Part shown: positions 6,046 through 38,292 of the stretch, piece after piece
How the letters are laid out: every line of letters begins with the position of its first letter
Position numbering within the stretch: the first letter of the stretch is position 1
DNA from: a virus
IMG/VR virus record: IMGVR_UViG_3300032893_000075
Coordinates: 1 to 49,235 of that record
Direction: 5' to 3' (one strand)
Length of the DNA stretch: 49,235 bases
Translations under genes and position numbers: made by a program
Notes under the pieces: generated by a model
Databases searched by the model: none
What the model was told of the DNA's origin: nothing
What the model saw: the letters and a program-made list of their open reading frames with translations, nothing else

Positions 6046-6069
6046 GGATATCTCCTGGTGGTAGTGCGG

Positions 6070-13209: not shown

Positions 13210-13439
13210 GACTCGACACTCGCCCGCTTGTGCAGGCCAAAACTCCAGTGCTGGAAATCGCTGCCAAAGGTCAGCGTGGGCGGTTCGCCCTGGTCGATGA
13301 GCGCGTGACTGTCCTTCAGGTCGCCGAGGAACATGTATAGCCACGGCTCGACGATGCTCTGAGGCAGGCGGAGCATCTCGCGCTCGATGCCTCGCACCGC
13401 CTCTTGCGCTTCCCGGATTTGCTGCTCGATGAGGCTCAT
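13206..13439 (-). CDS. Small conserved-looking protein (77 aa)
   Basis: 77 residues (MSLIEQQIREAQEAVRGIE ...). The N-terminal half is a helix; the C-terminal half contains PWLYMFLGDLKDSHALIDQG and ends in an HWSFGL segment. A GGGGGAC site precedes the ATG. Both ends overlap neighbours by four bases. Function unknown. Confidence 0.65.
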   Translation of the reverse strand: MSLIEQQIREAQEAVRGIEREMLRLPQSIVEPWLYMFLGDLKDSHALIDQGEPPTLTFGSDFQHWSFGLHKRASVES

Positions 13440-13727
13440 CGTGTCCCCCCATCGCGCGCCATACGCTGTGGGAACGCCGGAGAGCCCCAATAGGCGCACT
13501 CCGAGCAGAACCAGTCCGCACAGCAGTACTGCGCTCCTGGCGTCACACAGCGCGCCGCACGCTCGCAGGCGAAGCATGGCCAGCCTTCCGGCGAAACCTG
13601 GTTCACCGCAGCCATGACGCGCCCGAGGTCGGGCGGGCAAGCGCGCATAGGCGGCGCAAGCGCGCATAGGCGGCGCAAGCGGCTGGTGGCACGCCGTCAG
13701 CAGAATCACCGCGATGAGCAGTCTCAC
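13436..13727 (-). pseudogene. Cys-rich lipoprotein gene broken by a 19-bp tandem duplication
   Basis: A GTG at 13727 overlapping the upstream stop (GTGA) begins VRLLIAVILLTAC, a good lipoprotein signal with lipobox LTAC. After residue ~24 the frame is lost at two exact copies of a 19-base unit (13637-13674). Removing one copy restores a single 90-residue reading frame that joins ...QPLAPPMRACPPDLG to VMAAVNQVSPEGWPCFACE and ends at 13436, overlapping the next start. The rest contains paired cysteines (CFAC, CC, CSEC). As given, either the gene is broken or a separate 59-residue product starts at 13615. An assembly error at the repeat is possible. Confidence 0.65.
13637..13674. repeat. 19-bp tandem duplication
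   Basis: The unit GCAAGCGCGCATAGGCGGC occurs at 13637-13655 and again at 13656-13674, followed by a 7-base partial third copy. The length is not a multiple of three, so the duplication shifts the frame of the lipoprotein gene that contains it. Confidence 0.95.
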
Positions 13728-25172: not shown

Positions 25173-25355
25173 ATGGAGCGCGACCCATTGTCATTGCTCG
25201 AGCGGGCCTACGTTGCTCTCTCGCAGGCCGCCGAAGAGCTTTCAGAGGCGGTGTCGGACTTGCGCAGCGTCCGGCGCCAAAAGGTTAAGAGCCTGCTCGA
25301 ACGCGTCGAAGAGATGCGAGACCAGCTGCGAGACGAGACGAGGTGGGGATTATGA
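25173..25355 (+). CDS. Small coiled-coil protein (60 aa)
   Basis: 60 residues, a continuous charged heptad helix (LERAYVALSQAAEELSEAVS, VKSLLERVEEMRDQLRDE). The ATG abuts the upstream TAA and the stop overlaps the next ATG by four bases. Unknown function. Confidence 0.6.
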   Translation: MERDPLSLLERAYVALSQAAEELSEAVSDLRSVRRQKVKSLLERVEEMRDQLRDETRWGL

Positions 25356-25789
25356 GACTGATCATCATGCTTCTGGTTCTGTCCGGCTGCTCGACGGAGC
25401 TCGAGCGCTCGAGGTCGTTCTCGCTGAGCGATGACGGCGGCGCGCCGGATATGACAGTCGCCGTGCTCGGCATGCAGTGCCGTCCCAATCTGGTGGTGCC
25501 GCCGTGCGGCCCTGGTTTGCAATGCTCGCCGGATTGCGACGTTGGCCTGACCTGCACCGTCGACGGCCAGTGCTTGCCTCCCTGCGGCAATGGCAACGTG
25601 AGTTGTACCGGCGGCACGGTCTGCACCGAGGGGCACGACTGCATTCCGCCGTGCCTCAATTCGGCCGGGCCAATTTACGAGAACGTGCCCGGCTCGTGCG
25701 AGGGCAGCGGGCTGATTACCACCGATGACCGGCGATGCGTTGTGCCTTGCTGGTTCTTCGTCTGCTCGCTGTTGGGAGGTCACTGCTGA
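25352..25789 (+). CDS. Cys-rich secreted lipoprotein
   Basis: 145 residues from ATG at 25352. The signal MRLIIMLLVLSGC has lipobox LSGC; the next residue is Ser, which by the E. coli Lol rule favours the outer membrane. A linker with SLSDDGGAPDM follows. The mature part has about 18 cysteines in EGF/Dickkopf-like spacings (CGPGLQCSPDC, GLTCTVDGQCLPPC, GGTVCTEGHDC). Such Cys-rich lipoproteins are common in myxobacteria. It may alter the host surface in lysogens or block superinfection; that is inference. Confidence 0.8.
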   Translation: MRLIIMLLVLSGCSTELERSRSFSLSDDGGAPDMTVAVLGMQCRPNLVVPPCGPGLQCSPDCDVGLTCTVDGQCLPPCGNGNVSCTGGTVCTEGHDCIPPCLNSAGPIYENVPGSCEGSGLITTDDRRCVVPCWFFVCSLLGGHC

Positions 25790-26244
25790 TGAAAGATATT
25801 GCCCGGCTCGCTGTCGCCACCGTCGAAGGTGTCGACCAATGTTTGACCGAGCTCGGCCACGGCGTGTCCGTCCTGCACGTCGAGGTCATGGCTAAGATCA
25901 AGAGCTACGAGGCGCGCGTCATCGAGCTCGAGCTGCAGTTGCAGAATGCGCTCGACCAGGCAAAGGAGAGAGAGGCGGCGCGCCTCGATGCCGTGAAAGA
26001 GCGCGACGAGGCGCTGGCCAAGCTCGCGCCGCCGACGCAGCGGCATCCCGACGTCTACCCGGGCTCGATCTCGGCCCTACGCGATGAACTATCCGCGAAA
26101 ATCGATTCTCTCCCCTTGCGGCAGCTGATGAGCGCCGGCGGCCGCATCGAGCGGCTTCGCGGTTTCATCGCCGGCCATATGGACCCCGAGGGTTGCCCAT
26201 GCAGCTACTGCGTGGGCGCTCGCGAAGTGCTGACCGACGAGTAG
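25789..26244 (+). CDS. Coiled-coil protein with Cys-rich end (151 aa)
   Basis: 151 residues. N-terminal helix (IARLAVATVEGVDQCLTELG), then a long coiled coil (IELELQLQNALDQAKEREAA ...). The end carries HMDPEGCPCSYCVGA, a CxCxxC cluster. ATG overlaps the previous stop by one base (TGATG). Similar helix-plus-Cys accessory proteins occur in phage early regions; function unknown. Confidence 0.6.
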   Translation: MKDIARLAVATVEGVDQCLTELGHGVSVLHVEVMAKIKSYEARVIELELQLQNALDQAKEREAARLDAVKERDEALAKLAPPTQRHPDVYPGSISALRDELSAKIDSLPLRQLMSAGGRIERLRGFIAGHMDPEGCPCSYCVGAREVLTDE

Positions 26245-26247
26245 CTG

Positions 26248-26451
26248 ATGCGCCTCTACATCGACATTCCCGACCAGGGCAACGACCTCGCCAATCGCCG
26301 CGCTGAAGTCACGACGGCGCGCGCTTTCGTCCTCGTCATGGGCGCGTGCTTCATCGTCGCGGGCCTGCTCGGGCGGCGCGGGTCAATCGGGCTCTATCAC
26401 ACGCCTGGCGGCATCTCGGATTCGACGGTGTGGTTTTGGAGGGATTGCTGA
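26248..26451 (+). CDS. Small single-pass membrane protein (67 aa)
   Basis: 67 residues. One hydrophobic segment, AFVLVMGACFIVAGLLG, lies at residues ~26-42 after a charged N-terminus. The C-terminus (STVWFWRDC) is aromatic. The stop overlaps the next ATG by one base. Unknown function. Confidence 0.58.
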   Translation: MRLYIDIPDQGNDLANRRAEVTTARAFVLVMGACFIVAGLLGRRGSIGLYHTPGGISDSTVWFWRDC

Positions 26452-27059
26452 TGCCCATCGACGGCGACATTGCGATGCTCGAGTCAGTGCTGGCCGAAGC
26501 AAAGGCGCGAATCGCCGAGCTGGAAATCGAGCGCGACGCTTGCTGGCGCCAGGCTTTTGCGCACGAGTGGGAAGTAATCGGCGAACTTGCGGGAATGGAA
26601 CGCGTATGCAGACTGCGACGCGACCTCGCCGCCCGCAATCTCGAGAGCGCGCGGAAGTGGCAGGTGAAATACGAGGAGTTGCTAGCAAGCGACGCCGCTG
26701 ACCACTACCGAAACGAGGCGCTCAAACTCGAGGACGAGCGCGACGCATTGCGGGCGCAGCTCGCCGAGGCGCAGGCGGGCGCGGCGGTGATGCGCCAAGT
26801 AATCGAGTCATTCATCGAGCACGACGACATCACCGAATATCCGAAACCTGACGGATCAATCGGCTCGGTTGCGCGCGAAGCCCTTGCCACCTCCGCAGGC
26901 GCCGCGGCGGCCGAGCGGATGCGGCGGCTGGAGCGGGTGTACGAGGCGGCGCGCCGACATCGACGCAAACACGACACACGTACAGCATGGGTAAAGGATA
27001 AACGAGATCTCGACGACGCCATCGTCGCCGTCGCCGAACTGGACAAGGAGCCGAAATGA
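26451..27059 (+). CDS. Long coiled-coil accessory protein (202 aa)
   Basis: 202 residues, with two coiled-coil blocks (LESVLAEAKARIAELEIERD; LKLEDERDALRAQLAEAQAG) joined by a Trp-containing segment. The C-terminal part is basic and ends in a helix (LDDAIVAVAELDKEP). This pattern is like Ea22-type phage accessory proteins. No catalytic motif is visible. Coupled by overlap at both ends. Confidence 0.6.
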   Translation: MPIDGDIAMLESVLAEAKARIAELEIERDACWRQAFAHEWEVIGELAGMERVCRLRRDLAARNLESARKWQVKYEELLASDAADHYRNEALKLEDERDALRAQLAEAQAGAAVMRQVIESFIEHDDITEYPKPDGSIGSVAREALATSAGAAAAERMRRLERVYEAARRHRRKHDTRTAWVKDKRDLDDAIVAVAELDKEPK

Positions 27060-27313
27060 GTGATGTTGAATGCTGCCCGTTTCAAACCACGTGTTGCGCT
27101 CGCAGTGGGTCCGTTCCGCGTGTAGTTCATATGCGTGCATATGAAGTCTACAGACATGTATTTGGTCAGCAGGAGGCACTAATCACCGGGGGATGCCGAG
27201 GAGGCTTCGGTATCGGAGAGTTATTTGCCTTTCTATACGCATATCCATTCCCAAAAGAGGAATGGCGCGACCGCGTGGACGAGGCAATTAGCGGTTTTAA
27301 GGCTCGCAAATGA
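27056..27313 (+). CDS. Small Cys-containing protein (85 aa)
   Basis: 85 residues. Cysteines cluster at the N-terminus (CCPFQTTCCARSG). The rest (YEVYRHVFGQQEALITGGCR, LFAFLYAYPFPKEEWRDRVD) looks globular and helical. The DNA is AT-richer than its neighbours. Four-base overlaps at both ends. Unknown function. Confidence 0.55.
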   Translation: MSDVECCPFQTTCCARSGSVPRVVHMRAYEVYRHVFGQQEALITGGCRGGFGIGELFAFLYAYPFPKEEWRDRVDEAISGFKARK

Positions 27314-27624
27314 GCGCGCCGCCGAATTTGACCGACGACGAGGCCGCGCTGTGGGGACTGTGCGACGGTGCCGACGAGGCGCATTTGAACGCGGCGGACG
27401 TGCGTTCCCTCCTGACCGCGATTAGCACCGCGCGCGGCGAGGCGAAGCGGATGCGGGAGGCGCTGCAAGAAATCGCCGACGAGGTCAACAAAGCACACGC
27501 GTGGCACCCGACCACTGGTATGAAGGTCGCCAAGCCGCCGCGTGTATTGCCGTCGGTGGTGAAATGGCTCAAGCCAATACTCGACGCCGCGCTCGCTGCC
27601 GAGGCGCGGGAGGGTGGCGAATGA
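27310..27624 (+). CDS. Small helical accessory protein (104 aa)
   Basis: 104 residues beginning MSAPPNLTDDEAALWGLCDG, then a long helix (LLTAISTARGEAKRMREALQ) and KWLKPILDAALAAEAREGGE. It resembles other phage early accessory proteins with a single amphipathic helix. No motif. Overlaps both neighbours by four bases. Confidence 0.58.
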   Translation: MSAPPNLTDDEAALWGLCDGADEAHLNAADVRSLLTAISTARGEAKRMREALQEIADEVNKAHAWHPTTGMKVAKPPRVLPSVVKWLKPILDAALAAEAREGGE

Positions 27625-27887
27625 AGCCGGTTGATTGGCGAAGCATGAGATGTCGCGCCTGTGGTCAGCGTGAAGGCTTGCAAGACGCGATTGCCGACCT
27701 TCGGATGTGGGCGATATCGCGCATTCATTGGTGCCGAATGGAAGAAGCCAAGCTCGGCGTCAGCGGCATCGGTATTTATGAGGCGTCCCAAGAGCGCCGG
27801 ACATTGCAGGCGGTACTGCGTCAGTTGGGATGCCCGGAGGAAGACTTTGATTCATCCGGTGCCAATGAACTGCGGAGAAAACCATGA
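27621..27887 (+). CDS. Small zinc-type protein (88 aa)
   Basis: 88 residues. MKPVDWRSMRCRACGQREGL holds one CxxC pair. A helical body follows (LQDAIADLRMWAISRIHWCR) and ends in an acidic/basic tail. It overlaps both neighbours by four bases. Unknown function. Confidence 0.55.
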   Translation: MKPVDWRSMRCRACGQREGLQDAIADLRMWAISRIHWCRMEEAKLGVSGIGIYEASQERRTLQAVLRQLGCPEEDFDSSGANELRRKP

Positions 27888-27994
27888 GCGCGTTTCTCCG
27901 CCACCCCTTCCGCGCCTGCCTGCTCGTCGCGCTGGTGCTCGCGCGGATGGCGGTGAGGGCGTGGGAGACGATGAGGAGTAGCAATGGGCGCTGA
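27884..27994 (+). CDS. Membrane mini-protein (36 aa)
   Basis: 36 residues: MSAFLRHPFRACLLVALVLA then a basic end (RMAVRAWETMRSS). One short hydrophobic helix with positive flanks. ATG overlaps the previous stop by four bases, and its 3' end overlaps the HNH start by 11 bases. Coupling suggests it is translated. Confidence 0.45.
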   Translation: MSAFLRHPFRACLLVALVLARMAVRAWETMRSSNGR

Positions 27995-28368
27995 TAGCAA
28001 TGCCCAGGCCGCCCGCCAGGTCGTGAACGTTGAAGTTCGGTTCGGCTTACGTCCGCATCCGAATAGCATTCCATGCGTCGACTGTGGACATGCCTGGAAA
28101 CCAGGAGAGCGACGTCACGAATACCACCACCACCGTGGATATCACCGCGACCACTGGTTTGATGTCGTCTCGGTTTGTACGAAATGCCATGCCGCTCATG
28201 GTGCGAAAGCATCGCAGACGCATTGTATTCATGGCCATGAATTTACGGTGGAAAACACGAAGCGCAGGGAGAACGGGACGCGTGAGTGTCGTGCGTGTCG
28301 TCGCGCTCAGAAAAAGCGCCAGCGGCCCGCTGCCTGGTGGCGTGCTCGGCGCGAAAGGAAAACAAAAA

Positions 28369-28376
<8 letters not shown>
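27984..28376 (+). CDS. HNH-type zinc protein (130 aa)
   Basis: 130 residues. CVDCGHAWKPGERRHEYHHH followed by GYHRDHWFDVVSVCTKCH forms an HNH-like core with two CxxC knuckles. A second motif, CIHGHEFTVENTKRRENGTR then ECRACRRAQ, is the small DNA-binding repeat often attached to phage HNH proteins. It may be a homing or nicking endonuclease. It lies in the accessory chain next to the Gp37/Gp68 gene. Confidence 0.75.
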
Positions 28377-29220
<844 letters not shown>

Positions 29221-29251
29221 CCCGCCGCCTGGACCGCGGCGAGGGGGATGC

Positions 29252-29461
29252 ATGAGTCGCAGTTTTCACATGGCGCTCAATATCGAAGCCGACTATCGCA
29301 AGTGGGGGAAATTCGTAACTCACGAAGGTCGACCCGTAACGGCTTACGAGTTCGAGCGATTTCGCGCCGAGTGCAAGGCGAAGGGTTGGGAGGTGTTTCC
29401 GCCCTGCGACAGTATCGACGAGAAGACAGGCAGATGCGCCGGGCACGGAGACGACGAGTGA
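29252..29461 (+). CDS. Small protein (69 aa)
   Basis: 69 residues with AGGGGGATGC upstream. YRKWGKFVTHEGRPVTAYEF then RFRAECKAKGWEVFPPCD suggests a small alpha/beta protein; the end is Cys/His-containing (CAGHGDD). Its stop overlaps the GTG of the excisionase-like gene. Unknown function. Confidence 0.6.
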   Translation: MSRSFHMALNIEADYRKWGKFVTHEGRPVTAYEFERFRAECKAKGWEVFPPCDSIDEKTGRCAGHGDDE

Positions 29462-29844
29462 CCGCCCTGCTCACCCCCGCCGAGGTCGCAGAGCGCCTAG
29501 GGCTGTCCAAGAGCGCCACGTACCGAGAGATCCGCGGGCACATGGTATACGTCCTGCTCGGCCGGCGCTCGATCCGCGTGCCCGAGTCGGCTGTCACCGC
29601 TTATCTCGAGAGGCGAACATGTCGCAATCCGACCACCTCTATCTCGTCGGCAAGATCTACTACTGCTGGTACTACGACGCGCAAGGGGTCACGCGTCGCA
29701 AGTCAACCAAGTGCCGTGACAAGCGAGCCGCCGCCGCCTTCCTTGCCAGGCTCGAGCGCGCCGCGCAGAGTGCGTCCGAAACCGCCAGGGACGCGACGCC
29801 ATGGACCGTCGACGACGCCGTCAACTGGTTCGTCGACAACGTGA
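29458..29844 (+). CDS. Excisionase/AlpA-like helix-turn-helix protein
   Basis: From GTG at 29458 (GTGA overlap). LLTPAEVAERLGLSKSATYR, then EIRGHMVYVLLGRRSIRVPE and SAVTAYLERR are a complete MerR/Xis-type winged helix. The natural end would be near 29640, but the frame stays open and overlaps the integrase by 226 bases with Ser/Thr/Pro-rich, unnatural sequence. Either a stop codon was lost or the tail is non-functional. Position before an integrase fits an excisionase. Confidence 0.65.
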   Translation: MTALLTPAEVAERLGLSKSATYREIRGHMVYVLLGRRSIRVPESAVTAYLERRTCRNPTTSISSARSTTAGTTTRKGSRVASQPSAVTSEPPPPSLPGSSAPRRVRPKPPGTRRHGPSTTPSTGSSTT

Positions 29845-29980
29845 CCGGAATCGCCCCGCAGACGGTGCGCATGTACATCGAAAAGGGCGCGCAGCTCGTG
29901 CGGCTACTCGGCGCGATCGACGTGTCCATGTTGTCGCTGCCAAACCTGCGCCAGTACATCAAGCAGCGCGAGTCGATACC
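29619..29980 (+). pseudogene. Tyrosine integrase, N-terminal part only
   Basis: ATG with AGAGG upstream. Residues 1-50 are an arm-binding-like domain (YLVGKIYYCWYYDAQGVTRR, then KSTKCRDKRAAAAFLARLE). Residues ~60-118 are a core-binding SAM-like domain (WTVDDAVNWFVDNVTGIAPQ, LVRLLGAIDVSMLSLPNLRQ). At about residue 119 the coding signal ends: the frame runs on to 30422 but only as a shadow of minus-strand genes. The catalytic R...H-x-x-R...Y domain is absent. The break is at ~29975-29985. Integration would need another integrase or this form is defective. Confidence 0.75.
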
Positions 29981-30325
29981 GGCTCGCTCGCATGCGGCGT
30001 GGAGGTCGCGGCGCACGTTCGCCACGAGATGCTCAGGCCTGACACATCCGACTTGTCGACAGCGCGAGCGGACGCAGTGCTCTGCCGGAATCCGGCCGAT
30101 CGCGAATTGCCAGACCAGGCGACGCACTGGCTGCCAGCACTGCGCGAGCTTGATGAGCGGCGCGCCGCTGCGATCATGCTTGCCGCCGAAGATCCAGCAA
30201 TCACCGACTGCCGTGGTACGACTCCAAACCTTCATTCGGAGGACAGCGCCGTCGAATCCATGGCGCGCCAGCTCGTCGAGAAGTTCGGCGAGGATGGGAT
30301 CGTCGATCGAGTCGGGGCGCGGCAT
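29975..30325 (-). CDS. HNH-type protein, C-terminus cut at the rearrangement point
   Basis: From ATG at 30325, about 117 residues before the joint. CWIFGGKHDRSGAPLIKL, then VRRLVWQFAIGRIPAEHC and CRQVGCVRPEHLVANVRRDL follow the phage HNH pattern CW-W-G...R...G-I-P...C...C-V-P-HL. The usual His before the first of these cysteines is replaced (SRC), so activity is doubtful. Past residue ~117 the frame reads antisense to the integrase, so the natural end is lost. The start overlaps the upstream stop by one base. Confidence 0.62.
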
Positions 30326-30645
30326 CAGCGATCGCCTTCGACGGCGCGCAGGCCGCGCGCCTCGGCCGCCGCAGCCGCCACGTCTTCGGCGTCAACAGCG
30401 TGCACGCGGGACAGGTCAATAAGCCACTTCCGCCCGTGTCTGGTCGCCGGCAGCCGGCCTGTTTTGCACAGGCGCTGGACAGTGGCCTCGCAGTAGCCGG
30501 TCGCCTGTGCCGTCTCAGCGACGCTCGCCCATTGCGTCGGCAGCCGTGCGGCCATTCTGGCGTTCTGTTCTTTCAGTTCAGCGACGTCGGCCCGAAGCGC
30601 ATGCAACTCGTCGCGGACTTCAGCTAGAAATGCATCGAGGCCCAC
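30325..30645 (-). CDS. Coiled-coil plus excisionase-like HTH protein (106 aa)
   Basis: 106 residues. A helix (LAEVRDELHALRADVAELKE) leads to WASVAETAQATGYCEATVQR, LCKTGRLPATRHGRKWLIDL and SRVHAV, a clear MerR/AlpA-type helix-turn-helix. It lies on the minus strand within the block that interrupts the integrase. Possibly the excisionase or regulator of a foreign cassette. Confidence 0.7.
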   Translation of the reverse strand: MGLDAFLAEVRDELHALRADVAELKEQNARMAARLPTQWASVAETAQATGYCEATVQRLCKTGRLPATRHGRKWLIDLSRVHAVDAEDVAAAAAEARGLRAVEGDR

Positions 30646-30852
30646 CTACCCGACCTCGAGCTCGCGTAGTCCCATGAGGAGCAGCGCGATGCTGCCACGC
30701 CGGCAAGGCAGACCACCGACGGCACGCTCAAGCACACCGCGAGAACTTCTGAGAGCCACGGCGGCGGCGATTACGCCGCGTTCCTCGACGAGACGCGCCA
30801 ACTTCTGCCGCTCGGGAACGGGAAGCTTGTCAGCGATTGGAGATTTTTTCAT
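30646..30852 (-). CDS. Small HTH-like protein (68 aa)
   Basis: 68 residues with AGAGG upstream. LVEERGVIAAAVALRSSRGV then LERAVGGLPCRRGSIALLLM matches a small helix-turn-helix pattern (variable first helix, R-x-x-L-x-R-A recognition). Stop abuts the next ATG. Probably a regulator of the minus-strand cassette. Confidence 0.6.
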   Translation of the reverse strand: MKKSPIADKLPVPERQKLARLVEERGVIAAAVALRSSRGVLERAVGGLPCRRGSIALLLMGLRELEVG

Positions 30853-30892
30853 GTCGTTTGCCTCTTGAGTCGAAGCTAACGACAGAAGACGA

Positions 30893-30908
30893 ATACGTCG
30901 AAACGTAT
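30893..30908. promoter_or_regulatory. Inverted repeat ATACGT-CGAA-ACGTAT
   Basis: Perfect 6-base arms around CGAA, in the gap between the minus-strand genes at 30852 and 30919. On the minus strand a TTATAC box overlaps its edge and could be a -10. It may be an operator for the small HTH gene downstream. Confidence 0.5.
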
Positions 30909-30918
30909 AAAAGGCGGA

Positions 30919-31206
30919 TTATTTCTGTGCGGATTTCTGCGAACGTACGGCTTTCAATGCGCCGTCGATTTCAGCACGTGTGATGCGCCAGCCGTTCTGA
31001 GAGAGCCACTTTGCGGCCTCGGCCGACGAAATATCACCAACGATGGCTCGTAGCTCGGCGACTACGGCTTGTAGACGTCGCTTCGACGCCGGCCGCCCAC
31101 GCTTCTGTTCCTCGTCGGCTCGAAACCCAAGGTGGTCGAAAATACGGGTGAGGTGCTTGAGCTCTTCCAGCAGACGATCAACCTGCGCAAGGCGCTCGTC
31201 AGTCAC
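30919..31206 (-). CDS. Hypothetical protein of the minus-strand cassette (95 aa)
   Basis: 95 residues from GTG at 31206 (VTDERLAQVDRLLEELKHLT); the frame is open up to 31359 but the extra 51 residues cross the rearrangement point. A coiled coil is followed by a basic segment (KRGRPASKRRLQAVVAELRA) and a C-terminal helix-turn-helix-like part, AEAAKWLSQNGWRITRAEID. Probably a DNA-binding regulator. Start uncertain. Confidence 0.5.
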   Translation of the reverse strand: MTDERLAQVDRLLEELKHLTRIFDHLGFRADEEQKRGRPASKRRLQAVVAELRAIVGDISSAEAAKWLSQNGWRITRAEIDGALKAVRSQKSAQK

Positions 31207-31217
31207 CCACGGCAGGC

Positions 31218-31508
31218 GTGGCTGTGATTTGTTCGACCAGGCATAGCAACGATAGGTTGTGGCGGGATGCTGTAAGCGGTTGCTACGTCCATCGATCCGT
31301 GGCGAGACTCGACAAGGGAATCCCGAATCCGAAGGTGCGGCCAGTGCTTCCGGCGCCATGGGAACTGAGGTTTGATTTGAGTATTTTCCCGAACAGGGAG
31401 ATTCAAGAGCAGGAGATTTTGAACCTATTCGACGAAGGTGGCCGTGCGCTCGGGCTCGGTACCTTTCGCGGGCTGTACGGGAAGTTCATCGTCGAAAACT
31501 GGGAGTAA
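31218..31508 (+). pseudogene. C-terminal fragment of a conserved phage early protein
   Basis: Real coding sequence appears only from about 31284: RDAVSGCYVHRSVARLDKGI, then ELRFDLSIFPNREIQEQEI and RALGLGTFRGLYGKFIVENW. This matches the C-terminal half of a phage protein I know as ~200 residues, ending in a G-x-G-x-x-R-x-x-Y/G-x-F block. No ribosome site or good start precedes it. The N-terminus is missing at the same rearrangement that cuts the integrase. Confidence 0.55.
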
Positions 31509-31610
31509 ACCGAAGCCCGGCCCGGCGCTGCGCGGCGGGGCCAGGCAAGGCGGCGCAGGGATGGGCAGGGCCAGGTAGGGCTGGGCATGGCCTGGCAAGG
31601 CAAGGGTAGT
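31509..31610 (+). repeat. Degenerate GGCAAGG/GGCATGG tandem repeat
   Basis: About 100 bases of short imperfect units such as GGCCAGGCAAGGC, GGGCTGGGCATGGCC and TGGCAAGGCAAGGG. It runs from the stop of the gene fragment into the start of the next gene. I recall similar GGCAAGGC tracts after homologues of the same upstream gene in other phages. Role unknown. Confidence 0.75.
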
Positions 31611-32003
31611 TTTAATAAGGGGTTTCAATTGAGCATCATCGACCAAAGGCTAACCCACGATCCGCTGTGTCCGTTTAGGCGTGAGCGCGACGACCGAATC
31701 GCCACCCTCGAACGCGAGCTGGCCGAGGTCAAGCAAGAATGCGAATGGCCTCGCTACAAGCGGCTAGCCGAGGAAAATGGCAACGCGGCGCGGGCGCTTG
31801 AAACTAAGCTGGACGCGGTAAAACGCGAGCTGGCCGACGCGCGGCGGGCGCTGGCGACGGCGCAGGTGCGCTTGAGCGAAATCAGCGGCCGAGCATGGCG
31901 CGAGGACGGTGGCGCCTACGGCTACGTCGTTGCTGACGCCGAAATTGTAGGCGTGATCGACGAATTAAAGAGCGCACTGGCCGCGCGCGAGAAGGGGGAA
32001 TGA
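31587..32003 (+). CDS. Coiled-coil accessory protein (138 aa)
   Basis: ATG at 31587 lies inside the GGCAAGG repeat; TTG at 31629 with AAGGGG seven bases upstream is an equally good start (124 aa). The body is a long coiled coil (RIATLERELAEVKQECEWPR; AVKRELADARRALATAQVRL) with a C-terminal helix (VIDELKSALAAREKG). Unknown function; probably an early accessory protein. Confidence 0.6.
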   Translation: MAWQGKGSFNKGFQLSIIDQRLTHDPLCPFRRERDDRIATLERELAEVKQECEWPRYKRLAEENGNAARALETKLDAVKRELADARRALATAQVRLSEISGRAWREDGGAYGYVVADAEIVGVIDELKSALAAREKGE

Positions 32004-32302
32004 CTATGAACAATCGAGTGCTAATGGCGCTATCGCTGATAGTCGTCGCGCTGGGCGGATTCTTCGTCGGGCGCGCCACCGGGGAGGCCACCGCTTGCAT
32101 GCATGAATTCTTTCAAAGCGCCGTGGAAATTACCAAGGCCGCGGTCTCCTCAGTCGGCTCTGATCAGATTTGCCGACCTGGCGATGTGATGGAATACGGC
32201 GGATTGCCCCCAAGGGGATGCATCAAGGTTAGTGACCTCAACGGTGGCGTGTATGGATGGGTTGCCGTCGACGCTACGAACCTGCACATAGGGCCGCGAT
32301 GA
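32000..32302 (+). CDS. Membrane-anchored or secreted protein (100 aa)
   Basis: 100 residues. The N-terminus MTMNNRVLMALSLIVVALGG then FFVGRATG is a membrane anchor or uncleaved signal. The rest (VAVDATNLHIGPR) is small and polar, with two cysteines (ICRPGD, RGCIKV) that could form a disulfide outside the membrane. Overlaps both neighbours by four bases. Confidence 0.58.
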   Translation: MTMNNRVLMALSLIVVALGGFFVGRATGEATACMHEFFQSAVEITKAAVSSVGSDQICRPGDVMEYGGLPPRGCIKVSDLNGGVYGWVAVDATNLHIGPR

Positions 32303-32649
32303 CCGACGCCGAACTGCAACGCCTGCGCGCGCTGGCGCAGGCCGCGACGCCGGGGCCGTGGAGAGATAATCACGTGGGCGCCGTCAAAAACGAAGCCGGT
32401 CGAGATATTCCAATTACATATTCTGACGCCGCCTTCATCGCCGCCGCTCGCAACGCCATGCCGGCCCTGCTCGACGAGATCGACCGCCTGCGCGCGGCCG
32501 AGGCGATTGTGCGTACGCTGGCGAATCAGCCCATCGAGACAACGATACCCTGCGTGTTTTGTTTTCAGGGGATGATCATGAACGGACGCCGATCGCATGC
32601 GGACAATTGCCCGTACGCGAAAGCCGTCGAGCACGTGCAGGGGCGCTAG
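32299..32649 (+). CDS. Ea22-like accessory protein (116 aa), last rightward gene
   Basis: 116 residues. LQRLRALAQAATPGPWRDNH, then DAAFIAAARNAMPALLDEID is the pattern of Ea22-type phage early proteins. A C-terminal Cys/His cluster (CVFCFQG ... HADNCPY) follows. Its stop overlaps, tail to tail, the stop of the minus-strand hydrolase gene by four bases. No terminator hairpin separates the two units. Confidence 0.7.
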   Translation: MTDAELQRLRALAQAATPGPWRDNHVGAVKNEAGRDIPITYSDAAFIAAARNAMPALLDEIDRLRAAEAIVRTLANQPIETTIPCVFCFQGMIMNGRRSHADNCPYAKAVEHVQGR

Positions 32650-33290
32650 GCATTCGGCGCCTGCACCGCCTCCGCCGCCTCGATCCCTCCCCACTGCTCG
32701 AACAATAGCGAAGCCTGCGCGCTGAAGTCCTCGACCGCCACCGGCCATCCCGCCCCACTGCCCGGAAACGCCACCCACGTCACGCCATGGTCAACGCCAC
32801 CGTTGCGCGGGCTCGAAGGGATTCCCAGCAGCTGCGCCAGCGCGATCGAGCCCTCGCCGAGCTTCCTGTGCGGCCCGACGTCGGCGACAATGGCGGCGAC
32901 GGCGCGCTCCTTGTAGGCCACCATCACCAAGTCACCGAGCTTCACCCCGCGCCGCTCGAGCTCGGGCGGGATCGAGATATATGGCACCATCGACGAGTCG
33001 ACGTAGCGCGCGGGATCATCGAACGCGCGCGAGCGATCCTGTAGCGCCGTCTGGCTGATGTAATAGCCGGGCGCCGGGTCATCGGGCCCCTGCACAAGTG
33101 GGGAGCCCATCGCATTGGTAACGACGCCCACCCATGCGCCATCGTCAGCCCTGGCGTTGCCCAGCGCGTCCAGGCCGCCGCCGCCCGGGTGATAGGCCCG
33201 TGGGCACCCATCGGCGTCGACCTCGTAACCTGACGTCCAGGCGAGCGCGCCGCGCACCAGCTGCACGGCGGCGATGGTGGTTGTGGTCAT
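32646..33290 (-). CDS. GH75-type hydrolase (chitosanase fold), candidate endolysin
   Basis: 214 residues from ATG at 33290 with AAAGGAGAC upstream. GYEVDADGCPRAYHPGG, YYISQTALQDRSRAFDDPAR, YVDSSMVPYISIPPELE and LGDLVMVAYKERAVAAIVAD followed by VGPHRKLGEGSIALAQLLGI match the GH75 order; Asp137 and Glu146 are the likely acidic pair. It ends the late unit after membrane and spanin-like genes, the usual place of a lysin. GH75 enzymes are known as chitosanases, so peptidoglycan as substrate is inferred. No signal peptide is visible. Confidence 0.72.
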   Translation of the reverse strand: MTTTTIAAVQLVRGALAWTSGYEVDADGCPRAYHPGGGGLDALGNARADDGAWVGVVTNAMGSPLVQGPDDPAPGYYISQTALQDRSRAFDDPARYVDSSMVPYISIPPELERRGVKLGDLVMVAYKERAVAAIVADVGPHRKLGEGSIALAQLLGIPSSPRNGGVDHGVTWVAFPGSGAGWPVAVEDFSAQASLLFEQWGGIEAAEAVQAPNA

Positions 33291-33372
33291 CGGAGTCTCC
33301 TTTCGATTTGCATCCCGAAAAGAACCCCCACTCCGAGCCCAAGCGCGAAAGCGCCCCATAGCTCAAACCAGG

Positions 33373-33744
33373 TCACCGTTTGCTGCTGCGACGTCGCTCG
33401 GCCGGCGTGGGCTCGGGGTCGTCTATGGGCTCAAGAGGGGGAAGCGGATGAGGCACAGAGGGGTGAAACGCAGGGGCGGGCCAGGACCAGCGGCCGGCAA
33501 AAGCGCGAACTTCGTCGCGCAGCTCGCCGCAGCGGCGTTCGCTTTCAGCGGCAGCCTGCTCGAGCGCGACGAGCCGGCGACCCATCTCTTCGCCGACGAC
33601 CGCAAACATATCTTCGAGGCGCTGAGTTTCCTGCAGGATTTCGTCGAGCGGCGGAGGGACGTAGCGGAGGGGGCGGCGCCTGGCGATGATGAAGAGCGAG
33701 ACCAAATTGCTCAGCGCCATGGCGGCGATGAGCGCGGCGATCAT
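33373..33744 (-). CDS. Spanin-like (Rz-type) inner-membrane coiled-coil protein
   Basis: 123 residues. N-terminal membrane anchor MIAALIAAMALSNLVSLFII followed by basic residues, then a coiled coil (QRLEDMFAVVGEEMGRRLVA, LEQAAAESERRCGELRDEV). The end is Pro-rich. This is the layout of i-spanins, which disrupt the outer membrane after the cell wall is cut. It lies directly before the GH75 gene. No separate o-spanin was found inside it. Confidence 0.55.
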   Translation of the reverse strand: MIAALIAAMALSNLVSLFIIARRRPLRYVPPPLDEILQETQRLEDMFAVVGEEMGRRLVALEQAAAESERRCGELRDEVRAFAGRWSWPAPAFHPSVPHPLPPLEPIDDPEPTPAERRRSSKR

Positions 33745-34490
33745 GCGGCACGCAATCGGCGAGCCGTCCTCGCCGCCGGGTGCTTCTTGGTGCTCTCGCG
33801 CCAGTTGGCAGGCCGCACCGGGTGATAGACGCGCTTGCGCGCCTCGACCTGCCCATCGGCGCCAGCGTCGCGAACGATGGCGTATCCGCCAGCCGCGATG
33901 CTCAGCGGCGAGCCCAGCACGCCCATCTGGTCAACGGCTGTGCCCGGCGGAGCGGCCGCACTGAACCAGGCCGGCAATACAAAATTAGAGCCGTCGACCT
34001 TGGTTCCATCCGCGCAGCTGACGGCAAAGGCCTGCTCTTGCACCGGGTCGCAGAGCTCGAGCGCCACTTCGCCGTGCGACTGGCCAGTCTGTCGATCGAC
34101 CAGCGGCCCATCACTCCAAAATCCCGCGAAGACGTCGAGCGCCGTCTCCGCCGCCTCATGGCTGAGAACGCCCGCCAGCGAAGCGCCGGTGCCGCCCTTG
34201 TCGAAGAGCAGCTCGCCATCGGGCACGACGTCGAGAAAGGCACGGCCATAGGGCCGCCCCTGGCCATCGATGGCGTGATAGCCGAGCGCGCCGGCCGCGT
34301 CAGGGTGGTCGAAGACGATGAGCGCGATGGTGCCGGCGGGCGCCGCGGTGACGCCCGGCATCCACTCGACCGCGATCGGCACACGCTCCCAGGCCGCGCA
34401 GACGATCGCCAGATATAGCTGCAGCGCTTCGCCAATCTTCGCCATCGCATCGGCCGGCGCCTTGCTGCAGTTGAGGAGGGCGAATTTCAC
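33741..34490 (-). CDS. Phage protein with HEAAE motif (metallopeptidase-like)
   Basis: 249 residues from GTG at 34490 (GTGA overlap). The core AGVLSHEAAETALDVFAGFW then EVALELCDPVQEQAFAV matches a phage family with SHE-x-x-E...D-P...E-x-CDP. The H-E pair with later Asp/Glu/Cys suggests a metal site. A DGSNFVLPAWFSAAAPPG segment follows. It has no signal peptide. Role unknown; it lies in the lysis/envelope block, or could be a late virion protein. Confidence 0.58.
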   Translation of the reverse strand: MKFALLNCSKAPADAMAKIGEALQLYLAIVCAAWERVPIAVEWMPGVTAAPAGTIALIVFDHPDAAGALGYHAIDGQGRPYGRAFLDVVPDGELLFDKGGTGASLAGVLSHEAAETALDVFAGFWSDGPLVDRQTGQSHGEVALELCDPVQEQAFAVSCADGTKVDGSNFVLPAWFSAAAPPGTAVDQMGVLGSPLSIAAGGYAIVRDAGADGQVEARKRVYHPVRPANWRESTKKHPAARTARRLRAA

Positions 34491-35113
34491 AGCGGCACGC
34501 GCGCTGCACATGCCGTCGCCGAGTGCGAAGCCTGCCACGTCTTGAGCCGCGCAATCGCCTCGAGATACGGCTTCGTCGGCTCGCCGGTCTTCGGCACCTG
34601 CCCCTCGAGCCACGCCTCGACGGCGGCGACGGCGCAATTCAGTTGAGCGGGACCGACCTGGCCGCCGAGCGTTTTGAGTTGCGTCGCCCAGTCGGCGCCG
34701 GCGGTTAGCGCAATCGAGACAACCGCCGCGATCACGCTCTGCGCGGTGTTCGGCAGCTGGCCGAGCTCGCAGGCCCCGAGGGCCGCGCCGCCCGGAGTTG
34801 CGCATGCGAAGGGCATGAACAGCGCGAACGCCAGCACCTTCGCCGCCGTGGCGACCTGCGACGGATTGGCCTGTGCGAGCGCCGAGAGCGCGCCAGCGAT
34901 GGCGAAGTGCTCGACGGTGACCCAGCTGAACGCGTGCGACTGCAGACCTTGAATGGTCGCCGTGATGCTGGCGTTGACGGTAGCGATGAGCCACAAGGCG
35001 ATTGGCGTGTGCAGCGGGCCCGTCGACGGGGTGAAGCGCCGCAGGGCATAGCTGGCGAGCGTGAGCACGAGCAGGATGGCCGCCGGCCACCCCGTCAAAG
35101 ACAGGTTATCCAT
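34487..35113 (-). CDS. Multi-pass membrane protein, holin candidate (208 aa)
   Basis: 208 residues with AAAAGGAGAAG upstream. Hydrophobic segments: WPAAILLVLTLASYAL, PIALWLIATVNASITA, VLAFALFMPFACA and VIAAVVSIALTAG. A polar helical tail follows (YLEAIARLKTWQASHSATAC). Three or four membrane passes and the position before the lysin are compatible with a large holin, but no family is recognised. Confidence 0.5.
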   Translation of the reverse strand: MDNLSLTGWPAAILLVLTLASYALRRFTPSTGPLHTPIALWLIATVNASITATIQGLQSHAFSWVTVEHFAIAGALSALAQANPSQVATAAKVLAFALFMPFACATPGGAALGACELGQLPNTAQSVIAAVVSIALTAGADWATQLKTLGGQVGPAQLNCAVAAVEAWLEGQVPKTGEPTKPYLEAIARLKTWQASHSATACAARVPL

Positions 35114-35137
35114 GGTGCTTCTCCTTTTGGTTTGGAA

Positions 35138-35530
35138 CTATCGAGAGCGGCGCGTGGGGTCGTCGTCGACGATTTCCTCGACGATGGCGCTTCGATCGCT
35201 GAGCTTTTCGCTTAATCGGCGAATCTCTCCCGTGTTCTCTCGCAGATTCTCCGCCAGGCGCTCGCGAGTGAGCGCGCGCAATTCGCGGAGCTCTTCAAGC
35301 TCATCGGTCGAGATCTCGCCTCGCTTTGGACTCGGCAAGAGCGCCGGCACGGCTCCGCGCGCGAGCGTTGCCGCAACGACGCCGCCGAGCCATCCCATCA
35401 ATTCATGATTGAGCTGGCCGAACTTGATGAGGTCGATGGCCAACAGTGTCCCGAGAACAAATAGGACGCTGCACCAGGCGAAGATCTCGCCGACCGTTCG
35501 GTCAATGATGGGGCGCTGCGAATGCTCCAT
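35138..35530 (-). CDS. Two-pass membrane protein, holin-like (130 aa)
   Basis: 130 residues. Two membrane segments, IFAWCSVLFVLGTLLAIDLI and LMGWLGGVVAATLARGAVPA, in the first 65 residues, then a charged coiled coil (TDELEELRELRALTRERLAE). Size and layout fit a class II holin or a membrane-anchored regulator. It overlaps the 39-aa membrane gene by 29 bases. Confidence 0.55.
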   Translation of the reverse strand: MEHSQRPIIDRTVGEIFAWCSVLFVLGTLLAIDLIKFGQLNHELMGWLGGVVAATLARGAVPALLPSPKRGEISTDELEELRELRALTRERLAENLRENTGEIRRLSEKLSDRSAIVEEIVDDDPTRRSR

Positions 35531-35621
35531 GATGCACCAAATACAGGGTTATTGCGGCGACAAACGGTAGGAACGGAATGAGATAAGTCAGGTAGCGGAG
35601 ATAGCGAATTCTCGAATGCAT
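35502..35621 (-). CDS. 39-residue membrane protein in lysis block
   Basis: ATG at 35621 has a strong GAGGGGAAGG upstream. The product starts MHSRIRYLRYL and has one membrane segment (TYLIPFLPFVAAITLYLV) with a basic N-terminus and a His-rich end. Its 3' end overlaps the following two-pass membrane gene by 29 bases. It could be a small holin, antiholin or lysis regulator. Confidence 0.55.
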   Translation of the reverse strand: MHSRIRYLRYLTYLIPFLPFVAAITLYLVHHGAFAAPHH

Positions 35622-35638
35622 TGCCTTCCCCTCGTCCG

Positions 35639-36418
35639 TCATTGCTGGAATCTCCAGGGTTCAATGCGAGCGATACAAGTATAAATGTCCTCCGCTATTT
35701 CATCGTAACCAGGGGCTTTGTAGTGAAGCCAATCCGATTGTAGATAGGCCGTGTTCACGTTAGCAAGAGAGCAAAACTCGACCTCGGGATATCGAGCGGC
35801 CGCAATTGGCGGCATGTAGCCGTTTAGCTCTTGGTCGTATGGATCGATCGCTGTACCGGCGCCGCTCGGCGGATCAGAAATCAGCACCACCCGGCAATCG
35901 TGCGAGCAGTCGGCGAGAATCTTGTCGACGAGGCTCGCAAGCTCGACGCCAATCTCGCCCTTTGGCGAGGGGAAATTACCGGCAATCGCTGCTTGATTCG
36001 CGTCATTTTTTCCGATCATCAGCGCCACGATGTCGGGCTGATATTCGGCCATAGGGCCATCGATCAGCGACGCCAGTTGCGAGATTACATAACCGGGGTG
36101 GCCCTCGTGGCTGTAGTCGCGCTCGAGGAGCGGGTCGCCCTGGTCGTTTTGCAGAGACCCAACGAAGTCGCTCTTGATGCCCGCAGCGCTCAGTCGCTCT
36201 TTCAGAAATGGTCGATAGCCGCCAGGCACATACAGGCCGTCGGTGTTGCTGTCACCGGCGGGCATGATTTTCATGCGCTTGATTTGGGGAGCCGGGCCCC
36301 AATTCATATCGAAGCCCATATCAGAGCCGCCGTCGTCCATCAGCAGCGAGGTCGAGACCGATGGCACACTGAACGTGCACGCTGAGAGAAGCAGCGAGAC
36401 CAAAAACAAAGACTTCAT
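35639..36418 (-). CDS. Secreted SGNH/GDSL hydrolase lipoprotein
   Basis: 259 residues. Signal MKSLFLVSLLLSAC has lipobox LSAC; Thr at +2 favours outer-membrane sorting by the E. coli rule. A linker with LLMDDGGSDMGFDM follows. The SGNH fold shows GDSNTDG (Ser57), EGHPGYV (Gly block), MIGKNDAN (Asn138) and DWLHYKAPGYDE (Asp229, His232), so all catalytic residues are present. Likely substrates are acetylated sugars or lipids of the cell surface. It may alter the receptor during lysogeny or release. Confidence 0.85.
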   Translation of the reverse strand: MKSLFLVSLLLSACTFSVPSVSTSLLMDDGGSDMGFDMNWGPAPQIKRMKIMPAGDSNTDGLYVPGGYRPFLKERLSAAGIKSDFVGSLQNDQGDPLLERDYSHEGHPGYVISQLASLIDGPMAEYQPDIVALMIGKNDANQAAIAGNFPSPKGEIGVELASLVDKILADCSHDCRVVLISDPPSGAGTAIDPYDQELNGYMPPIAAARYPEVEFCSLANVNTAYLQSDWLHYKAPGYDEIAEDIYTCIARIEPWRFQQ

Positions 36419-36430
36419 AGACCTCTCCCT

Positions 36431-37432
36431 TTATTGGACCATGCAGCGCCAGTTAGTTCCGTCGCTGCGACACATGGTGCAAGAGTTATTGACCTTCACG
36501 CAGGCTGTCAGCGTCGAGGCAGAGCCGTTAATCGTTTCGCTCGCATTCTGTGCACAGGCGATGTTGTGCGAAGCAGCGCCGCCTGCGTCGTCGCACACAA
36601 ACACGGTCCACCCATTGCCGCACGTCGACGGAGACGGCAACGTATAGGTGCGTGCCGAGCTCGTATCTGTAAATGCTGCTTCGGTTTCGGTGCAGGTCCC
36701 TGCTGTGCTGTTGCTATATGGGTTGCGAGTGAACTTCACCCCGACGGTCGACAAGATGAGGCGCGTGTTATTCGCGGTGACTCCCGCCATCGTGTGATTG
36801 GCGGAGTCTTGGATGTAACTCATTCCCGAGGCGCCATAGGTTATCTTGACGCCGAGCGAATCCGAAATGACGACGTTTGCGCCGCTGCCGTGGCCGGCTG
36901 CATTGCTGATCGTGCCGTCGGGATAGAAGCCTAGTACCTGTGTCCCGTTGTTATCGAGGCGCAACAATCGCGAAGTGGTATTGCTCAGCGTCGTCGAGTT
37001 ATTGAAATAGATCCCAATGCTCGAGGAGCCGTCGGCAACGTTCGAATTGAATCGCAAACCCGTCGTATTTGTCGCGCTCGCTCCCGCCGTCGCGATCGTA
37101 TTTGCTGCCAGCGTCAAAGTCGCCGGCTTGAATGCGACCGACGTCGCGGTCCCATTGCCGATGCCGATTGCCCCTGCGCCGGTCAAATCGAGGTTATTGC
37201 CGGAGAGAGTGAAGTTGCCGAGCGACGTTCCGGTCGCACTGAATGTCGTGAGTGCGTTCGATGAGTCGTCGCTACAAGTCAACGCGCCGGTGCAATTGAT
37301 CTTGAAGCGAATCGGCAGATTGACGCCGCCGTTTTGGATGCGCATCGGCGGAATGCTGTCGCCCCTGCGAATCGACGTGCCAGCGCCGGCGCACCCCGTG
37401 AGCAGCGCCAGCAATAGCGCCAGGCGCTTCAC
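36431..37432 (-). CDS. Fibre-like protein with a lipoprotein signal
   Basis: 333 residues from GTG at 37432 (GTGA overlap). It begins VKRLALLLALLTGC, a lipobox LTGC, next residue Ala. The rest reads like a trimeric phage fibre: SNALTTFSATGTSLGNFTLS, NNTTG-type beta turns, LLRLDNNGTQVLGFYPDGTI, and a Cys-rich C-terminal knob (TCGNGWTVFVCDD, CVKVNNSCTMCRSDGTNWRC). Virion fibres normally lack export signals, so this may be placed on the host surface. The signal could also have been picked up by chance; SignalP-type testing is needed. Confidence 0.72.
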   Translation of the reverse strand: MKRLALLLALLTGCAGAGTSIRRGDSIPPMRIQNGGVNLPIRFKINCTGALTCSDDSSNALTTFSATGTSLGNFTLSGNNLDLTGAGAIGIGNGTATSVAFKPATLTLAANTIATAGASATNTTGLRFNSNVADGSSSIGIYFNNSTTLSNTTSRLLRLDNNGTQVLGFYPDGTISNAAGHGSGANVVISDSLGVKITYGASGMSYIQDSANHTMAGVTANNTRLILSTVGVKFTRNPYSNSTAGTCTETEAAFTDTSSARTYTLPSPSTCGNGWTVFVCDDAGGAASHNIACAQNASETINGSASTLTACVKVNNSCTMCRSDGTNWRCMVQ

Positions 37433-37761
37433 AGCCGCACCTGATCGAGCGGCAAGCACTCGACGTCGCACGTCGCGGTTCCGCCGCTGTCGGGACACTT
37501 GAGGAACACGCTCGAGATGGCGATCGGCGCGACCACCCCACCCCAGATGCGCGACTCGCCCGGCAAAAGATGCGCGGTAAAGGTGGTGCCACCGTCAAAA
37601 CTGACATCAACGTTGTTAGATGACTCGGGGCGATTGGCAATCCGCATCCAGTAGCACTGCGGATAGCCAGCCGACGGGAGAGTGCTGACGGTCTCGCCGG
37701 TATGGTCGACGGAGATCGGCGACGAGCCGGAAAGCGTACCGGCATAGGGGATTTGCGCCAT
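37429..37761 (-). CDS. Small beta-sandwich virion-like protein (110 aa)
   Basis: 110 residues: IPYAGTLSGSSPISVDHTG, CYWMRIANRPESSNNVDVSF, DGGTTFTAHLLPGESRIWGG. This is the pattern of small phage beta-sandwich proteins that coat fibres or heads. It begins a new transcription segment after the plus-strand lipoprotein and overlaps the fibre-like gene by four bases. Possibly a fibre partner or chaperone. Confidence 0.6.
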   Translation of the reverse strand: MAQIPYAGTLSGSSPISVDHTGETVSTLPSAGYPQCYWMRIANRPESSNNVDVSFDGGTTFTAHLLPGESRIWGGVVAPIAISSVFLKCPDSGGTATCDVECLPLDQVRL

Positions 37762-37777
37762 TTGGGTGGCTCCATTG

Positions 37778-37797
37778 GTTCACGCCGAGGCGTGAAC
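37778..37797. repeat. Hairpin GTTCACGC-CGAG-GCGTGAAC
   Basis: Perfect 8-base stem with a 4-base loop in the 116-base region between the divergent genes at 37761 and 37878. TTGACT follows at 37803 on the plus strand. No T-run marks it as a terminator. It may be an operator for the plus-strand lipoprotein or part of the 5' leader of the minus-strand genes. Confidence 0.55.
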
Positions 37798-37877
37798 AAA
37801 AGTTGACTTTCTGATCAAGAGGTGCACGGCGCTCTCCGGATTGCTGATCGGTCCGGAAAGTGCTTTGATGTTCGGAC

Positions 37878-38291
37878 ATGAAAACGATGCTGATCGTCTT
37901 GGTGCTGGCTGGCTGCGGCGGAGCTCCCATCGATCTCACGCCGAAACCAAACCAAGATCACGCGGTCGAGATCATTTGGGGCTATCTCGGAGCCAAAAGC
38001 TCATTGCCCGAGATTTCATGGCGTCCAATGACATCGTGCCCGAATGGCGAACCAGGCCTCGGGTTTGATGACGGCGAAGGAAAGTGCGTCGCCGGCCTAT
38101 ATAACTATAGCGGCGGATTCGCGATCATCATGTGGATGAACACGTCATTTCACGAGACAGCACTCGCCCATGAGCTCATTCATGCTTGGCAATTCAAGGA
38201 TAAGGGCATCGCTGATTCGACGCATTCAATCGTTGCCGACTGGCATCAGGTCCCCGGGATCAATTACAACCTACAGGATTTTGGCCTCTAA
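37878..38291 (+). CDS. HExxH putative metallopeptidase lipoprotein (moron)
   Basis: 137 residues, the only plus-strand gene among 16 kb of minus-strand genes here. Signal MKTMLIVLVLAGC has lipobox LAGC. The mature part contains MNTSFHETALAHELIHAWQF with H98-E-L-I-H102, a zincin active-site motif, and two cysteines (TSCPNGEPG, GKCVAGLY) likely paired. DNA is AT-richer than the neighbours. Its stop lies one base from the fibre stop, tail to tail. This is the profile of a moron: a separately expressed gene that benefits the lysogen. The protease call rests on one motif. Confidence 0.78.
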   Translation: MKTMLIVLVLAGCGGAPIDLTPKPNQDHAVEIIWGYLGAKSSLPEISWRPMTSCPNGEPGLGFDDGEGKCVAGLYNYSGGFAIIMWMNTSFHETALAHELIHAWQFKDKGIADSTHSIVADWHQVPGINYNLQDFGL

Positions 38292-38292
38292 C

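What the first reader, a model, noticed from the sequence alone, without database searches (positions are those of the whole stretch)
25352..38291. A phage carrying five lipoprotein signal peptides
Lipoboxes head the products at 13727 (LTAC, broken), 25352 (LSGC), 36418 (LSAC), 37432 (LTGC) and 37878 (LAGC). None has Asp at +2. Phages usually carry one (Rz1 or a superinfection-exclusion protein). An SGNH hydrolase, an HExxH protease, a fibre-like and a Cys-rich protein on the outside of the host suggest a surface-remodelling system.
Basis: partly seen in the sequence, partly recalled or inferred. Interest (0 to 1): 0.75.

Follow-up and report, generated by a model that had tools for sequence, protein, structure and literature searches.

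The report
Myxobacterial phage with surface lipoprotein genes
A phage that most likely infects myxobacteria (the phylum Myxococcota) carries four intact genes, and one broken one, for fat-anchored proteins that should sit on the outside of the infected cell; this is far more than most phages carry, matches the habit of the likely hosts, and fits a wider pattern in which their phages send fibre-like and esterase-like proteins to the cell surface.

Summary
Lipoprotein signals head four intact genes (25352, 36418, 37432, 37878) and one frameshifted gene (13727). The scan finds 5 per 49 kb here, against 0.09 in shuffled sequence, 0.17 in 132 other viral loci, 1.1 in myxophage-like records and 3.9 in Myxococcota chromosomes. 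The closest named phage is Myxococcus phage Mx4, so the host is most likely a Myxococcota bacterium. The SGNH and HExxH proteins have chromosomal relatives in that phylum that are mostly lipoproteins themselves. 'Surface-remodelling system' is only partly supported: the Cys-rich gene lies in the early region, while the other three form one low-GC block between the tail fibre and lysis genes. The HExxH gene there is reversed, as are lipoprotein genes in Mx4, Mx8 and other relatives. Unexpectedly, Mx8 and Mx9 have the same kind of block: tail-fibre-like proteins with a Sec signal fused in front of an ordinary fibre N-terminus, next to an SGNH hydrolase. My best explanation is that these proteins act on the envelope late in infection by masking or de-acylating the receptor, plus an early exclusion protein (0.35). 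Export is inferred from sequence; function is untested.

The parts
25352..25789 (+). Cys-rich lipoprotein (LSGC), early region, starts by ATGA overlap with the upstream gene; DDGGAPDM linker
   Evidence: 17 Cys in 148 codons; only weak Cys-rich relatives in Myxococcota
35639..36418 (-). SGNH/GDSL hydrolase lipoprotein (LSAC); DDGGSDM linker; blocks GDSNT, GKND, DWLH
   Evidence: PF13472 E 7.2e-10, PF00657 3.4e-6; relatives in Myxococcota genomes, most of them lipoproteins
36431..37432 (-). fibre-like lipoprotein (LTGC), 10 further Cys, GTGA overlap with the gene upstream
   Evidence: no family match; weak likeness to Mx8p64 over 78 aa
37429..37761 (-). small Cys-containing protein, probably beta-rich, translationally coupled to the fibre-like lipoprotein; no signal peptide
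   Evidence: no family match
37878..38291 (+). HExxH lipoprotein (LAGC), reversed between tail genes
   Evidence: 30-35% identical to a chromosomal Myxococcota lipoprotein
13206..13727 (-). broken lipoprotein gene (LTAC), frame shifted by a 19-base tandem duplication at 13641-13678
35138..35530 (-). membrane protein, probable lysis gene (holin-like), directly downstream of the block
   Evidence: sequence and position only; no family match
38293..39555 (-). probable virion tail fibre; its stop codon is one base from that of the reversed HExxH gene
   Evidence: relatives in the tail operons of related phages; no signal peptide

Best explanation
This is a tailed phage with Mu-like head genes, a distant relative of Myxococcus phage Mx4, whose host is most likely a Myxococcota bacterium. 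It carries host-type outer-membrane lipoprotein genes as accessory genes. One group (37878, 37432, 36418) occupies an accessory slot between tail fibre and lysis genes, a place where other phages of this phylum also carry exported proteins. I think these proteins are made late in infection, exported, and held in the outer membrane. There the fibre-like lipoprotein would bind, and the SGNH enzyme de-acylate, the surface glycan or lipopolysaccharide that the virion uses as receptor, so that progeny are not caught by the dying cell or its debris and rivals are kept off. The HExxH protein would act in the same compartment. The early Cys-rich lipoprotein would serve as an ordinary superinfection-exclusion factor. 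Shown from sequence: lipoboxes, gene order, families, relatives, recurrence. Inferred: processing by signal peptidase II, outer-membrane placement, timing, substrate, and the effect on adsorption.
For: Lipobox excess over chance and over other phages. Outer-membrane sorting residues (rule from PMC5562445). Host phylum from Mx4 portal, capsid and gpD-like relatives and from prophages in Myxococcota MAGs. SGNH family with lipoprotein relatives in the host phylum; HExxH relative likewise. Low GC of the block, 0.574 against 0.631. Reversed lipoprotein genes in the tail region of Mx4 (independently annotated in OR576728), Mx8, L176, L177 and L240. The same kind of exported block before the lysis genes in Mx8 and Mx9: Sec-signal fibres p64/p14, and SGNH p67/p15. 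Mx8p64 and Mx9p14 are 96% identical over 240 residues but about 36% over the last 80, as expected of a receptor-binding tip. Cys content 4.0% in the lipoproteins against 1.2% elsewhere fits an oxidising compartment.
Against: No expression, localisation or binding data. The fibre-like gene has no relative in any collection searched, and its likeness to Mx8p64 is weak (E 0.01 over 78 residues). The window SGNH and Mx9p15 are not alignable by BLASTP, so they share a family and a position, not shown descent. AlphaFold models without an alignment were useless (pLDDT 39 and 36). The reversed HExxH gene may have its own timing. The lipoprotein density equals that of Myxococcota chromosome, so simple gene capture without a common function is possible.
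Confidence: 0.35

Rival explanations
1. Host-gene capture without a joint function: Myxococcota genomes are so rich in lipoprotein genes that any phage there picks some up; the individual genes help the lysogen or infected cell in unrelated ways, or do nothing.
For: Lipoprotein density equals host chromosome (3.9 per 49 kb); SGNH and HExxH relatives are host lipoproteins; one of the five is already broken; cargo differs from phage to phage.
Against: Other myxophage-like records average only 1.1, so capture alone does not set the number; three of the genes are contiguous; the exported fibre/SGNH arrangement recurs in Mx8 and Mx9.
Confidence: 0.3
2. The fibre-like product is a real virion fibre that is exported to fold with disulfide bonds and joins virions at lysis, or whose N-terminal helix is not processed at all; the lipobox is then incidental.
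For: In Mx8, Mx9, L279 and L296/L297 the Sec signal stands exactly in front of the N-terminal domain that begins ordinary fibres elsewhere; fibre tip divergence; many Cys.
Against: A lipid anchor would hinder release; the window has another probable virion fibre at 38293; virions assemble in the cytoplasm (established knowledge).
Confidence: 0.15
3. Prophage-type lipoproteins handed between cells by outer-membrane exchange, like SitA, acting on neighbours.
For: SitA lipoproteins are carried by the Mx-alpha prophage and transferred with outer membrane (PMC5562445); sorting residues fit.
Against: None of the four has a nuclease-type C-terminus in the family searches, and no SitB- or SitI-like neighbour was seen; the integrase-like gene is truncated.
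Confidence: 0.07
4. Lysis factors: one or more of the lipoproteins is an outer-membrane spanin subunit.
For: Position beside probable lysis genes; lipobox.
Against: All four are 137-333 aa with enzyme, fibre or Cys-rich domains, without the short Pro-rich make-up of Rz1; no spanin family match.
Confidence: 0.05

Closest known systems
Myxococcus phage Mx4 (OK085710, OR576728)
   Same: Mu-like head and tail genes, portal 27% and gpD-like about 35% identical; a reversed 134-aa lipoprotein gene right after the tail fibre
   Different: Two lipoproteins by this scan; no SGNH or fibre lipoprotein recognised; unrelated lipoprotein sequences
Myxococcus phages Mx8 and Mx9, genes p64-p67 / p14-p15
   Same: Fibre-like and SGNH proteins with N-terminal signals between tail and lysis genes; in Mx8 also reversed lipoproteins p58 and p59
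   Different: Mostly Sec (type I) signals rather than lipoboxes; short-tailed phages; no clear sequence homology to the window genes
Superinfection-exclusion lipoproteins (Ltp of TP-J34, PMC3952083; T5 Llp and phage Cor from general knowledge)
   Same: Phage-encoded surface lipoproteins
   Different: No PHROG match; larger, enzyme-bearing, and partly in the late region
SitA of Mx-alpha (PMC5562445)
   Same: Outer-membrane lipoprotein carried by a myxobacterial prophage element
   Different: No nuclease domain, SitB or SitI partner found

Membership tests
SGNH/GDSL hydrolase (35639-36418) | Pfam model above its cut-off, with catalytic blocks | tested here: met
   PF13472 40.1 bits against cut-off 32.9; GDSNT, GKND and DWLH read in the sequence
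Bacterial lipoprotein | Positive n-region, hydrophobic stretch, [LVI][ASTVI][GAS]C near the N-terminus | tested here: met
Bacterial lipoprotein | Processing by Lgt/LspA and outer-membrane location | not testable with these tools
   needs lipid labelling and fractionation
Zincin-type metalloprotease (37878-38291) | HExxH and a family model match | tested here: inconclusive
   HELIH present; SprT-like only E 0.057, below cut-off; chromosomal relative keeps HExxH
Phage tail fibre (36431-37432) | Match to a tail-fibre family | tested here: not met
   no Pfam, PHROG or NCBIfam match; weak likeness to Mx8p64
SitA | Lipobox | tested here: met
SitA | C-terminal toxin domain with SitB and SitI neighbours | tested here: not met
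   no such domain; neighbours are phage genes
Rz1-type outer-membrane spanin | Short Pro-rich lipoprotein paired with or nested in an Rz gene | tested here: not met
   sizes and sequences; no spanin match
Superinfection-exclusion lipoprotein (Ltp/Llp/Cor type) | Sequence match to a described family | tested here: not met
   no PHROG match for 25352, 35639 or 36431; only phrog_19616, of unknown function, E 0.017, for 37878
Superinfection-exclusion lipoprotein (Ltp/Llp/Cor type) | Blocks adsorption or DNA entry | not testable with these tools
   needs infection assays

The most novel reading that the evidence does not exclude
Phages of Myxococcota export receptor-binding-type proteins: tail-fibre-like proteins carrying a Sec or lipoprotein signal are placed on the host's outer membrane together with an SGNH esterase, as a built-in receptor-masking and receptor-destroying set comparable in purpose to a viral neuraminidase. 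The window is the lipid-anchored form and Mx8 p64-p67 the laboratory-accessible form.
Probability: 0.22. Interest if true: 0.8.

Novelty: new variant of a known kind. Interest (0 to 1): 0.5.

Why it matters
Signal peptides on tail-fibre-like proteins are unexpected, because virions assemble in the cytoplasm. If the exported forms are real, they give phages a way to rework the surface of the cell they leave, and Mx8 (a classical phage of the model Myxococcus xanthus) makes it testable at once. It also shows how strongly a phage's accessory genes can follow its host phylum's habits: the lipoprotein density here equals that of Myxococcota chromosomes.

Tried and rejected
Relatives of the SGNH, terminase, fibre-like and HExxH proteins in viral contigs: none. 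The same in annotated phages: none. Fibre-like protein in 284 genomes of the phylum of G009: none. Mx8p64-type fibre in 379 such genomes: none. AlphaFold of the HExxH and fibre-like proteins without an alignment: too poor to use, so no fold search was run. Similarity of the window's small protein and SGNH to Mx9p15 by BLASTP: none. Promoter and terminator scans of the block: no better than shuffles for promoters (1 found, 1.8 expected) and about twice the mean for terminators (6 found, 3.1 expected, sd 2.0), not used. L236, L243, L244, L246, L247 and L253 also show reversed lipoprotein genes near tail genes, but these may lie outside the phage or in domesticated elements, so they were not counted as support. 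The Mx9 and L207 lipobox hits in the myxophage set look spurious, so its rate of 1.1 is an upper estimate on that count; on the other hand the strict pattern misses Mx8p58 (LFAC).

Full report
What the window is. A virus record of 49,235 bases, GC 63%. The first ~118 bases recur at the end with one difference, so the contig is probably close to a complete, circularly permuted genome; IMG/VR itself classes the ends as linear. Head genes are Mu-like: gpT capsid PF10124 (2e-35), portal PF06074 (3e-24), S49 protease; other genes include a DnaB-like helicase, RecU, DUF2303 and a tape-measure protein. The best named relative is Myxococcus phage Mx4 (portal 27%, capsid 26%, gpD-like 35%), and full-length capsid relatives occur as prophages in a 'Deltaproteobacteria' MAG and related genomes. 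The host is therefore most likely a Myxococcota bacterium; this is inference from relatives. The tool did not name the phylum of the genomes searched around G009; 'Myxococcota' for them rests on the MAG title, genome size and the lipoprotein style.

The lipoboxes. All five are present as described. A rule-based scan finds 5 lipobox ORFs of at least 100 aa here, 0.09 on average in shuffles, 6 in 1.71 Mb of 132 other viral loci, 9 in 404 kb of 19 myxophage-like records, and 32 in 400 kb of chromosome from the likely host phylum. So the set is remarkable for a phage and ordinary for the host phylum. The signals are short (12-13 residues before Cys) compared with chromosomal ones (Mann-Whitney p 3e-4). 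By the M. xanthus rule cited in PMC5562445 all would go to the outer membrane.

The genes. The SGNH lipoprotein has chromosomal relatives at about 30% identity in the likely host phylum; six of the nine best (L165, L166, L168, L169, L171, L172) are read by eye as lipoproteins with acidic/Ala/Gly-rich linkers. The HExxH lipoprotein has one clear chromosomal relative, also a lipoprotein, sharing C..C, AGLYxxxGG and HELxH. The Cys-rich lipoprotein finds only weak Cys-rich matches. The fibre-like one finds nothing. The block 35600-38300 has GC 0.574 against 0.631 overall. The HExxH gene is reversed and ends one base from the stop of the tail fibre gene.

A recurring pattern. Reversed lipoprotein genes sit in the tail region of Mx4 (40560-40964, independently annotated in OR576728), Mx8 (p58, p59), L176, L177 and prophage L240. 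The cargo differs each time. In Mx8 and Mx9 the region before the lysis genes holds fibre-like proteins with Sec signals (p64/p14; p66), a small signal-bearing protein, and an SGNH hydrolase (p67/p15). Most of 63 viral loci with the same fibre N-terminus start at M-SRNGSG without a signal; only the Mx8 record (L278), L279 and L296/L297 show a hydrophobic signal fused directly in front. Mx8p64 and Mx9p14 diverge only at the tip. The old Mx8 sequence appears frame-shifted in the small gene and in p67.

How it may work. I favour a late envelope-acting set that masks and de-acylates the receptor, plus an early exclusion lipoprotein. This is inference; the main rivals are unrelated captured host genes and exported virion fibres. 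Against a lysogen-centred model, the integrase-like gene keeps only an N-terminal part beside an HNH gene (PF13392 9e-5, below cut-off), although two XRE-type regulators remain. The integrase-like call itself is read by eye: no Pfam family matched. Mx4 is described as lytic in PMC10720576.

Limits. No SignalP or LipoP, no expression or localisation data, no alignment deep enough for structures. Relative positions in MAG contigs may cross prophage ends. The window was chosen for looking unusual, so its p-values are optimistic.

Noticed in passing
L189 (Mx8) 36781-37854 and L198 (Mx9) 5383-6459: Tail-fibre-like proteins of two classical Myxococcus phages begin with a Sec signal peptide fused in front of an ordinary fibre N-terminal domain.
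   Followed up: partly
L189 (Mx8) about 37860-38172: An unannotated signal-bearing small gene (MRRVLLLALVALPALA...) lies after p64 in an apparently frame-shifted stretch of the old sequence.
   Followed up: partly
L190 40560-40964: Reversed lipoprotein gene missed in Mx4 OK085710 (p68/p69 called on the other strand) but annotated in OR576728.
   Followed up: yes
window 29619-30325: Integrase-like gene cut down to an N-terminal part, with an HNH-type gene on the opposite strand.
   Followed up: partly
window 13641-13678: 19-base tandem duplication that breaks the lipoprotein gene at 13727.
   Followed up: yes
window 4522-6045: 507-aa protein in the head region with long GGAGGATGTGGAA-type repeats, local GC 0.74; a similar repeat occurs in G004.
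   Followed up: no
window 20245-20649: Stand-alone response-regulator receiver domain (PF00072 7e-10) between two XRE-type regulators.
   Followed up: no
window 28030-29220: DUF5131 protein (PF07505 1e-72), 54% identical to one in G004.
   Followed up: no
window 32646-33359: GH75 chitosanase-like protein near the probable lysis genes, a candidate endolysin.
   Followed up: no
L243, L246, L247: Three tail loci of one genome each carry a related 373-377 aa Cys-rich lipoprotein; in L243 and L246 it lies beside a sigma-factor-like gene.
   Followed up: partly
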